From assembly GCF_009827325.1 (NCBI RefSeq), contig NZ_WTYC01000001.1, positions 248,001-312,000 of the forward strand: DNA of 64,000 nt, in the 5' to 3' direction. The notes beneath the pieces are model-generated. The model was not told where the DNA came from. It did not search any database and worked only from the letters and a program-made list of their open reading frames with translations. The DNA comes from Qipengyuania vulgaris. Its GTDB lineage: Bacteria; Pseudomonadota; Alphaproteobacteria; Sphingomonadales; Sphingomonadaceae. The position numbers and the translations under genes are program-made. Positions 18,122 through 20,962 of the stretch are shown in pieces (within the stretch, counting starts at the first letter, position 1; every line of letters starts with the position of its first letter).

Positions 18122-18427
18122 TCAGGATGACAGGCTGACCTTCCCGGCGGCGTGACGTTCCAGACGCCCTGCGATTTCCAGTTCGAGCAAGGCGAGTTGT
18201 ACCGCAGCGGCGCCTTGCCCCGACTGACGGACGAGTTCGTCAACAGAGACCGGCGCTGTCGTCAACAGGCTGGCGATATCCGCCGGTTCGGCGTCAGCGA
18301 GATCCTCCGGTGTATACTCGAATTGGGAGACGGGTTCGCGGAACGTCGAGCGCGGAGCGCCTTCGAAACTCGACAGCAGTTCGGCGACATCCTCGGGCGA
18401 TTGTACCAAGACAGCGCCCTCGCGGAT
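18122..18427 (-). pseudogene. dprA: dprA 3' fragment (winged-helix domain)
   Basis: Reading from 18427 on the minus strand gives IREGAVLVQSPEDVAELLSS, an acidic linker, then a winged-helix ending DELVRQSG through LLELEIAGRLERHAAGKVSL and a TGA stop. This is the C-terminal 101 codons of DprA/Smf, the protein that loads RecA on incoming single strands in transformation. It lacks its Rossmann domain, which is encoded at 20150-20962. A TTG at 18409 could in principle start a separate 95-residue product, but I see no good ribosome-binding site. Confidence 0.93.
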
Positions 18428-18729
18428 AAAACAAGCTACAGTTGCACAACTGGCTTAACTAACTGATAATAAGCCGCTTTCCTGATCTCCCGTTCTGTGA
18501 GTGGCGCAAGTATAATCTGAAAGCTGCCTTTCAGCTTAAGCCTCCATTCCCCCATAAGCAGAATCTCGAAGCGACCCAGGGTGCAGTCACAATGGGTTGC
18601 AAATGAAATCGCCGTAACCAGTCGTGATCGAGTTATGGGCAGACTGATGGCAAATCTCAACGTTTATCAGATTAGATCGTCGTAGGATCACGTGTTTACG
18701 GCTTTGCGACACTCGGTTATCTGCAACTT

Positions 18730-19338
18730 ATGAGCGATTGTGGGTGCGGACCAACCGAAGTCGAAACGAAAGAGCAGCGCCGTGCCTTGTGGATCGCATT
18801 GATCTTAAACGGCATCATGTTCATCGTCGAAGTCACGGCGGGCATTATCGCTCAGTCGACTGGCCTGATCGCAGACGGCTTGGACATGCTAACCGACGCA
18901 AGCGCATACGCAATTGCATTGGCAGCAATTGGGCGAAGCGCGAACTTCAAGGCCAAGGCCGCAACGCTGAGCGGTAGCTTGCTCATGCTCGTCGGAATCG
19001 GAGTTCTTGCGGATGTCGTCCGACGTGCAATTGTCGGGACAACGCCCGAAGGCAGTTGGATGATCGCTATCGCGCTGGTCGCGTTGGTTGTGAACGTTGT
19101 TGTTCTTCGCCTGCTGAGTAAGCAGCGGCGGGACGAGGTTCACATTCGCGCGGCATGGATCTTTACGCGCGCGGACATCGTAGCTAACTCTGCCGTCATT
19201 GCTTCAGGCGTTGCGGTTCTGCTTACCAGTATCGGCTATTTCGACCTGGTTGTTGGCGCAGCGATAGGATTGTACGTTGTCAAGGAAGCGCTCGAAATTC
19301 TTCGTAAAGCGAAGAAAGCTCGGATAGAGAGCGAGTAA
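18730..19338 (+). CDS. Cation diffusion facilitator family transporter, short form
   Basis: A 202-residue membrane protein with a cysteine-rich N-terminus (MSDCGCGPTEVE) that could bind metal, then about six transmembrane helices. Helix 2 reads STGLIADGLDMLTDASAYAI, where the usual HxxxD metal site is DMLTD; helix 5 reads WIFTRADIVANSAVI, again without the usual histidine. The protein ends right after helix 6 and lacks the cytoplasmic C-terminal domain of classic zinc exporters such as YiiP. It is likely a divalent metal exporter or sensor-linked efflux protein; specificity cannot be assigned. It is the sole cargo of module 1 and opposite in orientation to dprA. Confidence 0.85.
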   Translation: MSDCGCGPTEVETKEQRRALWIALILNGIMFIVEVTAGIIAQSTGLIADGLDMLTDASAYAIALAAIGRSANFKAKAATLSGSLLMLVGIGVLADVVRRAIVGTTPEGSWMIAIALVALVVNVVVLRLLSKQRRDEVHIRAAWIFTRADIVANSAVIASGVAVLLTSIGYFDLVVGAAIGLYVVKEALEILRKAKKARIESE

Positions 19339-19382
19339 GGATAATTTCTCGCTCAACGGCGGTTTTCCGGAACCTCGTTTTC

Positions 19383-19432
19383 AAAAGCTGCCATACCGCT
19401 TCCCACCCCAATCTCGGACATTGCTCTAAACA
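19383..19432 (+). repeat. GCTGCC-CGCTTCC repeat, copy 1
   Basis: About 50 bases starting AAAAGCTGCCATACCGCTTC and ending near CGGACATTGCTCTAAAC. It recurs upstream of the module 2 gene (19631-19685) and in part at 20007-20035. It lies between the transporter stop and the 90-nt right end of module 1. Function is unknown. Confidence 0.7.
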
Positions 19433-19441
19433 AGCGCGCTG

Positions 19442-19531
19442 CCTAAAAGCTGCCGCTAGCGCAAAAATCTGTCGTTCACAGATAAGTGTGATTTAAGTAC
19501 AGTAGCTTAAGTGTAAAGCTAGACCGCCAAC
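19442..19531 (+). repeat. 90-nt module right end, copy 1
   Basis: Begins CCTAAAAGCTGCCGCTAGCG, contains CACAGATAA and ends ACCGCCAAC. It aligns without gaps over 90 nt to 20052-20141 with clear but incomplete identity. It contains a small hairpin (TTAAG-TACAGTAG-CTTAA). It sits six bases before the AT that separates the two modules, so it is a candidate recombination site. Confidence 0.8.
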
Positions 19532-19630
19532 GAGTTCATAAAGCTAGTTACAGTTGCACAATCGCTCACAAGGCATTGAATTATTTGTATTTTGAGCTAC
19601 GGCGTGTTTGATGCGAACGAAAAAGATGCC

Positions 19631-19685
19631 CAAAAGCTGCCATTCCGCTTCCGACGCCATAGCGGACATGTGTCTATTGCTGTAA
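19631..19685 (+). repeat. GCTGCC-CGCTTCC repeat, copy 2
   Basis: Begins CAAAAGCTGCCATTCCGCTT and continues through GCGGACATG, closely matching 19383-19432. It lies immediately upstream of the small membrane protein gene of module 2, unlike copy 1, which is downstream of its gene. Confidence 0.65.
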
Positions 19686-19694
19686 ACTGCATTG

Positions 19695-19982
19695 ATGATG
19701 AATGCTGGCGACATCCCCTTTATAGCAGCTGTCATCGCGGTCGCCGTATTGGTGACCGTAGGGGCATTCCTTGTTCTACGATTGTTGAAGGTAGGACCGA
19801 TTACACTAAGGCTTTTGAGTTCGATGACTTTTCCTGCGCTGCTCGTAGCATTGATCATCTACGTCAATGTCTGGAACCCCGACCCGCACGGTTGGATAAT
19901 GGTGGCGCTGAGTTTTCTGGCCTTCGCAAGCCTGCCCTTCACCATCTTAACGACCGCACTTCTGACACGTCGTTTTGCCTAA
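19695..19982 (+). CDS. Small hydrophobic membrane protein of unknown function
   Basis: About 95 residues with three predicted transmembrane helices (near residues 8-30, 43-58 and 67-88) joined by short loops; the second loop reads NVWNPDPHGW. Two ATG codons in tandem (19695 and 19698) and a TTG just before them could each start translation. I recognise no family. It is the only gene in module 2. A passenger role such as immunity or envelope protection is possible but unsupported. Confidence 0.55.
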   Translation: MMNAGDIPFIAAVIAVAVLVTVGAFLVLRLLKVGPITLRLLSSMTFPALLVALIIYVNVWNPDPHGWIMVALSFLAFASLPFTILTTALLTRRFA

Positions 19983-20006
19983 GGTGCTGCTCGTAGTCTC
20001 TAGATC

Positions 20007-20035
20007 CGTTTCCCACCCTAAAATCGGCCATTCCC
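20007..20035 (+). repeat. CGTTTCCCACCC repeat, partial copy 3
   Basis: CCGTTTCCCACCCTAAAATC followed by GGCCATT resembles the second half of copies 1 and 2 (CGCTTCCCACCC, TCGGACATT). It lies between the module 2 gene and the 90-nt right end, the same relative position as copy 1. Confidence 0.5.
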
Positions 20036-20051
20036 CTCACCTCGCGCAATT

Positions 20052-20141
20052 CCTAAAAGCTGCCACAAGCGGGCAAAGCTGCCGCTCACAGATAATTGTT
20101 CTTAGAATACAATGATTTAAGCGTAGATTGGAATCGGCAAC
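20052..20141 (+). repeat. 90-nt module right end, copy 2
   Basis: Begins CCTAAAAGCTGCCACAAGCG and ends AATCGGCAAC. It is the gap-free counterpart of 19442-19531 and again stops six bases before the AT that borders native dprA sequence. Confidence 0.8.
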
Positions 20142-20143
20142 AA

Positions 20144-20962
20144 TCACATCAGGTGATTGCAACCATGGCTGCGCGCCTCCAGCGGGCTGCCGGGGATCGC
20201 CATGACCTCCCTGCCCGCTTCGCCGGCAAGCCGCGCGGTGATCAGGCTGCCCGACTTGACTGCGGCCTCGACCACCAGCGTACCTGACGCCAGCCCCGCG
20301 ATGATGCGGTTGCGGCTGGGGAAGTGGCTGCCGCGCGGTTCGGTTCCCGGCGGTTGTTCGGCCAGCAGAAGACCTTCCTGCGCGATCCGCTCCTGAAGCT
20401 CGGAGTGCTGAGGTGGGTAGGCGATGTCGATCCCGCTGGCGATCACCCCGATGGTCTGCGGGAAAGCACCCTCGTGAGCCGCCCCGTCGATCCCGCGCGC
20501 AAGGCCGGACACGACGGTGAAGCCGGCTTCCGAAAGCCCCTTGGCAAACTCTCGCGCAAGCTTGACCGCCGCAGCGCTCGCATTGCGCGCACCGACCAAG
20601 GCGACGCAGGGCTGAGAGGCAAGCGACATGTCCCCCCGCCATGTCAGGATCGGCGGCGCGCCGTCCATCTCGCCCAGCAAGCGCGGATAGTCGGGCTGGT
20701 CGTGGAAGAGATATTTCGCGCTTGCCCTGCGCAAGGCCTCGACTTCCCGCTCGATCCGGTCCTCTGGCGCTGCGCGATATTGCCGTCCGCCCTTCTTGCC
20801 GAGATCGGGAAGCGCGGACAACGCCTCTGCTGCCGTGCCGAAGCGCGCCAGCAGCATAGCGTAACTGACAGGCCCGATATTGGGCAAGCGCAGCAGGCGG
20901 ATGCGGGCAAACGCCTCTTCCTGCGTGAGTTTTGCTGCGACCGGATGGGCGGCTTCGTTCAC
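20144..20962 (-). pseudogene. dprA: dprA 5' fragment (SAM-like and Rossmann domains)
   Basis: Encodes the N-terminal helix-hairpin region (RLLRLPNIGPVSYAMLLARF) and the DprA Rossmann core: ALVGARNAS, VVSGLARGIDGAAHEGAF, SGIDIAYPPQH, FPSRNRIIAGLASGTLVVEA and AIPGSPLEARSHGCNHL. After that leucine the frame runs into module 2 and stops (TGA at 20144-20146). The start is the GTG at 20962, which overlaps the plsY stop (GTGA). A truncated 272-residue product could still be made and might keep the ssDNA-binding fold, but it lacks the winged-helix end. Joining codons at 20150 and 18427 through one AT gives a 372-residue DprA, the usual length. Confidence 0.93.

What the first reader, a model, noticed from the sequence alone, without database searches (positions are those of the whole stretch)
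18426..20149. dprA is split by two tandem AT-bounded passenger modules; removal restores the frame exactly
Seen: DprA N-terminal domains end at 20150 and the C-terminal winged helix resumes at 18427. Joining CTG (20152-20150) with one AT and the C at 18425 gives CTG ATC CGC GAG in frame and a 372-residue DprA. Everything between is low GC and unrelated. The dinucleotide AT is found at the left border, between the two modules and at the right border, as expected if each insertion regenerates an AT core. dprA is needed for natural transformation, so the insertion likely abolishes or lowers uptake-based recombination.
Basis: partly seen in the sequence, partly recalled or inferred. Interest (0 to 1): 0.75.

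Follow-up and report, generated by a model that had tools for sequence, protein, structure and literature searches.

The report
Two tandem passenger modules split dprA
In one bacterium the DNA-uptake gene dprA is cut in two by a pair of small related DNA cassettes that carry unrelated cargo genes and no enzyme to move themselves; the relatives that were read show the gene uncut at the same spot.

Summary
dprA is split at 18426-20149; dropping the insert and keeping one AT restores a 372-aa DprA. All 29 same-genus dprA genes that I read are uncut there. The insert is two diverged relatives in tandem: M1 (18426-19539, CDF cation-efflux gene) and M2 (19538-20149, orphan 96-aa ORF). They share a 24-bp left end and a right arm of about 120 bp; AT stands at all three junctions. 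I found no transposase, no terminal inverted repeats, no unusual fold of the arms and no Rfam match. Beyond the own genome, samples of 59 genus, 395 order and 278 class genomes gave only short or weak partial matches, so the predicted recurrence of the modules failed here. The M1 cargo recurs without the ends, also on a plasmid. Loss of transformation is not shown: a 272-aa DprA with most of the Rossmann domain remains, and dprA is broken otherwise in some other genomes. Best reading: non-autonomous cassettes inserted at AT by a recombinase acting in trans; its class is unresolved.

The parts
20144..20962 (-). 5' part of dprA, GTG start at 20962; now a 272-aa frame whose stop (20146-20144) lies just inside M2
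   Evidence: Pfam DprA_N and DNA_processg_A; length and start
18122..18425 (-). 3' part of dprA (winged-helix domain)
   Evidence: Pfam DprA_WH E 4.2e-15 on ORF 18122-18409; joins in frame to the 5' part
18426..19539 (+). module M1 (both AT borders included)
   Evidence: ends shared with M2
19538..20149 (+). module M2 (both AT borders included)
   Evidence: ends shared with M1
18426..18449 (+). left end of M1, ATAAAACAAGCTACAGTTGCACAA
   Evidence: direct repeat D3
19538..19561 (+). left end of M2, ATAAAGCTAGTTACAGTTGCACAA
   Evidence: direct repeat D3, 88% identical
19396..19539 (+). right arm of M1
   Evidence: 73% identical to the M2 arm over 120 bp; last 75 bp score above all 1000 shuffles
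20006..20149 (+). right arm of M2
   Evidence: as above; its last bases form an inverted repeat with dprA, CAATCAC-ATCAG-GTGATTG (hairpin)
18730..19338 (+). M1 cargo: 202-aa CDF-family cation efflux protein
   Evidence: PF01545 E 2e-23; TIGR01297 above its cut-off
19692..19982 (+). M2 cargo: 96-aa hydrophobic ORF, orphan in these searches
   Evidence: no Pfam or PHROGs match, only a sub-cut-off NCBIfam match E 0.011 to ABC_perm1; 1 of 396 order genomes, its own; no plasmid or viral relative
19382..19421 (+). copy of a dispersed intergenic repeat in the M1 right arm
19631..19669 (+). copy of the same dispersed repeat in the M2 left arm, 93 bp from the module start; a degenerate copy sits 92 bp into M1 (18518-18546)

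Best explanation
Shown: two related, transposase-less cassettes with different cargo stand head to tail in dprA at an AT. Inferred: they are non-autonomous mobile cassettes. A recombinase supplied in trans recognises the short left end and the long right arm and inserts a circular form with a crossover at AT, so each insertion leaves AT on both sides and a second cassette can use the AT at a junction. The lack of terminal inverted repeats and the 2-bp junction fit a serine-type or IS110-type (DEDD) recombinase better than a DDE transposase. A tyrosine recombinase that tolerates mismatched crossovers is also possible. The insertion cut DprA between its Rossmann and winged-helix domains, probably recently.
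For: Shared ends around different cargo. Uncut sites in 29 of 29 relatives read and frame restoration. AT at three of three junctions. No inverted repeats above shuffles. M1 cargo region 18582-19421 has a 90% copy without the ends on own contig C3 and in genome G003 and on Aurantiacibacter atlanticus plasmid NZ_CP015441, so ends and cargo have separate histories. Both dprA halves keep ordinary identity to relatives: G000 ranks 8th of 30 by C-minus-N difference.
Against: No further module or autonomous relative was found. Own genome: 2 copies. Genus: 4 of 60 genomes matched at E<=0.01, the own genome and three with pieces of 19-27 bp inside query 1-68. Order: 10 of 396 matched model R1 at E<=0.1, the own genome and nine weak partial hits. 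Class: 2 of 279 at E<=0.01, the own genome and one weak hit. Plasmids: the two right-arm queries gave none and eight chance-level records, E 0.8-3. Phages: none. The exact left-end pattern gave 24 stretches in the species-level genome collection and 77 in viral contigs; in the 30 bases on either side I saw no module. No large serine integrase is evident: 8 resolvase-domain matches, open frames 188-292 aa. The family rests on two copies at one locus, so one pre-formed double element is not excluded.
Confidence: 0.5

Rival explanations
1. One event: M1 and M2 were already joined elsewhere (for example on a plasmid) and entered dprA as one unit.
For: No single module was found in the searches, and only the outer borders are tested by the empty site.
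Against: The M1 right end and the M2 left end are both complete at the inner junction, with AT kept there, as sequential insertion would give. It does not remove the need for a moving enzyme.
Confidence: 0.25
2. Non-autonomous derivatives of an IS110/IS1111 element, moved by bridge-RNA recombinases present in the genome.
For: 11 IS110-family (PF02371) matches in the genome. The reverse complement of the M2 right end, ATGTGATTGTTGCCG, matches the left end of the IS at L162 (ATGGGGTGGTTGCCG) at 12 of 15 positions, counted by eye. IS110 elements recombine at a short core and have long non-coding ends (PMC11208160, passages seen).
Against: The M1 end matches at only 10 of 15. BLAST of the modules against IS loci L161-L170 (10 of the 11 matches had a locus) gave the dispersed repeat (L166, L167) and otherwise pieces with E above 0.04. 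The dinucleotide after CACAG varies among three of these IS (AT, AA, AC). Exact k-mers of 7 or more showed no coherent guide pair.
Confidence: 0.12
3. Integron cassettes inserted at a secondary G|WT site.
For: Tandem one-gene cassettes with a conserved 3' arm; the target reads GG|AT (the G|WT rule is recalled).
Against: Modules end in C before the junction and begin ATAAA, not G|TTRRRY (consensus recalled). The right arms do not fold better than shuffles on either strand, z from -0.51 to 0.07.
Confidence: 0.04
4. DDE-transposon derivative (MIC or MITE-like) with a short target duplication.
For: Cargo without transposase and a 2-bp duplication are known for such elements (recalled).
Against: No terminal inverted repeat: 345 of 1000 (M1) and 203 of 1000 (M2) shuffles align as well.
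Confidence: 0.07

Closest known systems
Mobile insertion cassettes and other non-autonomous transposons (for example TIMEs, PMC4133298; search listing only)
   Same: Small, cargo-bearing, no transposase, mobilised in trans (general features recalled)
   Different: Those have terminal inverted repeats; none was detected here
Integron gene cassettes
   Same: Tandem single-gene units with a conserved 3' segment
   Different: No G|TTRRRY junction and no unusual fold of the arm
IS110/IS1111 elements
   Same: Short core at the junction and long non-coding arms (PMC11208160, passages seen)
   Different: No recombinase gene in the modules; ends only weakly alike
Mobile elements that interrupt competence genes (comM in Acinetobacter baumannii, PMC11472951, passages seen)
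   Same: Mobile DNA splitting a transformation gene
   Different: Here dprA, by small cassettes; effect on transformation untested

Membership tests
DDE-type non-autonomous transposon (MIC/MITE/TIME) | terminal inverted repeats | tested here: not met
   first and last 45 bp inside the AT, both modules within the shuffle range
Integron cassette | G|TTRRRY core at junctions | tested here: not met
   junctions read C|ATAAA and GG|ATAAA; consensus recalled
Integron cassette | strongly folding attC site | tested here: not met
   z-scores -0.51, 0.07, -0.38, -0.41 for both arms and strands; no attC model was run
IS110/IS1111 (non-autonomous) | ends match an IS110-family element | tested here: inconclusive
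   one short end match counted by eye; no BLAST support
IS110/IS1111 (non-autonomous) | bridge RNA with loops matching donor and target | tested here: inconclusive
   no coherent guide pair among exact k-mers; no Rfam match up to E 1; no bridge-RNA model run
Large serine integrase element | integrase encoded in the element or genome | tested here: not met
   none in the modules; 8 resolvase-domain matches in the genome with frames of 188-292 aa
Tyrosine-recombinase element | integrase gene and arm/core sites | not tested
   no integrase in the modules; tyrosine recombinases of the genome were not searched
Site-specific mobile element in general | same ends at other sites, and an empty site in kin | tested here: inconclusive
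   empty site met; other sites not found

The most novel reading that the evidence does not exclude
A previously undescribed family of cargo cassettes that lack inverted repeats and any enzyme, insert precisely at an AT dinucleotide, stack in tandem like integron cassettes but without attC, and are driven by an unidentified recombinase in trans.
Probability: 0.3. Interest if true: 0.65.

Novelty: new variant of a known kind. Interest (0 to 1): 0.4.

Why it matters
If the cassettes are mobile, they would be a second, attC-free way for bacteria to stack single genes at one site. The case also gives a clean natural truncation of DprA between its two main domains, where 29 relatives read are uncut, so the need for the winged helix could be tested directly.

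Tried and rejected
Integron and DDE transposon readings were tested and not met; no large serine integrase was seen in the genome. Weak R1 model hits outside the own genome (nine, one) were looked at in alignment (nine loci) or in sequence (L172, L183). They cover parts of the arm; I judged them chance, some by likeness to regulatory boxes that I recall. The viral right-arm pattern gave 0 and 1 stretches; the one was judged chance from its context. Left-arm similarity between 25 and 92 bp is not significant (201 of 1000 shuffles); what the left arms share is the first 24 bp and the repeat copy.

Part of the right-arm similarity (about the first 75 bp) may come from the dispersed repeat rather than from module ancestry; the last 75 bp are not explained that way. 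All eight genomes that matched matched by the repeat, apart from the window itself.

Limits: one search scored two candidates per genome; searches used strict filters; one search scored five candidates per genome and printed part of its rows; one genome per species is held. Left-end scans of collections were exact-match only, and I read only 30 bases on either side. Whether the frameshifts in other dprA genes are real or sequencing errors was not tested. Tyrosine recombinases and other competence genes of the genome were not searched. The 12-of-15 and 10-of-15 counts were made by eye.

Full report
What is there. On the minus strand dprA begins at 20962 (GTG), runs to 20148, and resumes at 18425. 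By coordinates 1722 bp lie between once one AT is kept. The joined frame is 372 aa and reads GCNHLIREGAVLV across the join, as do the 29 same-genus loci that I read (L023-L051), one of which differs after REGA. The dprA search matched 59 of 60 genus genomes, the own one included; 30 loci were fetched, one of them the window's own.

Anatomy. Two modules stand head to tail on the plus strand, antisense to dprA. The first 24 bp of each (18426-18449, 19538-19561) are 88% identical and the right arms (19396-19515, 20006-20125) 73% identical. Between them lie different genes: a 202-aa CDF cation-efflux protein and a 96-aa hydrophobic ORF with no Pfam or PHROGs match and one sub-cut-off NCBIfam match (E 0.011). 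The 96-aa ORF was found in 1 of 396 order genomes, its own, and in no plasmid or viral contig. Both modules carry copies of a dispersed intergenic repeat that also occurs elsewhere in this genome and in other genomes of the genus and family. In the window I found it only in the modules at the thresholds used. It explains part of the arm similarity, not the last 75 bp, where 0 of 1000 shuffles reached the score.

Borders. AT is found at 18426-27, 19538-39 and 20148-49. Inside each right border the last six bases differ between modules (GAGTTC, AATCAC) and are preceded by CGSCAAC in both. The M2 border forms an inverted repeat with dprA, CAATCAC-ATCAG-GTGATTG, seen as a hairpin when folded. I estimate roughly a percent chance of such a repeat at one of three junctions (my arithmetic, no call), so it is a lead only.

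Where else. In the own genome the left-end pattern with one mismatch gave the two modules and one match inside a gene on C3, and model R1 gave the two right arms. In the genus, 4 of 60 genomes matched the right-arm query at E<=0.01: the own one, G009 and G024 by 25-27 bp of the repeat part, and G070 by 19 bp. In the order, 8 of 396 genomes matched M2 plus arms at E<=1e-4, outside the window by the repeat only, and 10 of 396 matched R1 at E<=0.1, nine of them weakly and in part. In the class, 2 of 279 matched at E<=0.01, one of them weakly. Plasmids gave 17 records for the whole insert, all within the CDF region, none for one right-arm query and eight chance-level records for the other. Phages gave none. 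The M1 cargo region 18582-19421 is 90% identical to a copy on own contig C3, the surrounding 3841 bp being identical in G003, and to plasmid NZ_CP015441 of Aurantiacibacter atlanticus, without the module ends. So the cargo travels separately, and the ends are rare or unsampled.

Mechanism. With no enzyme in the modules, movement must be in trans or long past. No terminal inverted repeats argues against DDE transposition. Junction bases and ordinary folds argue against integron cassettes. A 2-bp crossover fits serine or IS110-type recombinases (general knowledge). The genome has 11 IS110-family matches and 8 resolvase-domain matches with frames of 188-292 aa. One IS110 element (L162) has an end resembling the M2 right end, but BLAST found no more of it in the modules. 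I therefore commit to recombinase-in-trans insertion at AT at 0.5, without naming the enzyme.

Effect on the host. The cut leaves a 272-aa frame with the N-terminal HHH domain and profile positions 3-203 of 212 of the Rossmann domain. H. pylori work found the N-terminal domain sufficient for DNA binding and the C-terminal domain important for complex assembly (PMC4489622, abstract). Both halves remain about as conserved as in relatives, which points to a recent event. A wider order sample matched in 324 of 336 genomes. I then looked at 20 chosen genomes, among them the own one and others picked for low scores or two matches. dprA is split between frames in G022, G359, G106, G188, G126 and G169; it lacks its middle in G247; only remnants match in G273, G358 and G175; in G264, G118 and G167 the pieces lie on different contigs; G069, G043, G062, G262 and G030 are whole or nearly so; G146 shows two pieces in one open frame. 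G022 is of the same genus and is uncut at the AT site. So dprA damage is not peculiar to this insertion, and a selfish block on transformation is not supported by these data.

Literature. Searches for dprA interruption (20 of 255 papers listed), IS110 and cargo (15 of 38), Sphingomonad repeats (10 of 388), DprA domains (10 of 14) and cassettes (10 of 20) showed no title or abstract start that describes these modules; this covers only the listed rows of an open-licence library. Disruption of comM by mobile DNA is described in PMC11472951 (passages).

Noticed in passing
L164-L170 (own contigs C1, C10-C14, C18; a further match on C19 was not fetched): A near-identical multi-copy IS110/IS1111 element lies near contig ends; the flanks seen (left TTTGGGGTG-like in four, right GGAAAGCGGACATT-like in three) resemble halves of the dispersed repeat, so it seems to target that repeat.
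   Followed up: partly
window 19382-19421, 19631-19669; L006, L007, L011-L016, L053-L059: Dispersed intergenic repeat, near AAAAGCTGCCATTCCGCTTCCGACCCCATTGCGGACATT, in this genus and two other genera of the family.
   Followed up: partly
L188, L209, L193, L204, L198, L210, L201-L203: dprA split between frames, gapped or reduced to remnants in several other genomes of the order.
   Followed up: partly
L009 and L005: A 3841-bp stretch with a CDF gene is 100% identical between two genomes of the genus, which suggests a shared mobile replicon.
   Followed up: no
own contigs C1:25403, C7:579, C7:11117, C16:137: Four serine-recombinase matches with the same score (E 3.5e-42, frame 188 aa), probably copies of one mobile resolvase.
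   Followed up: no
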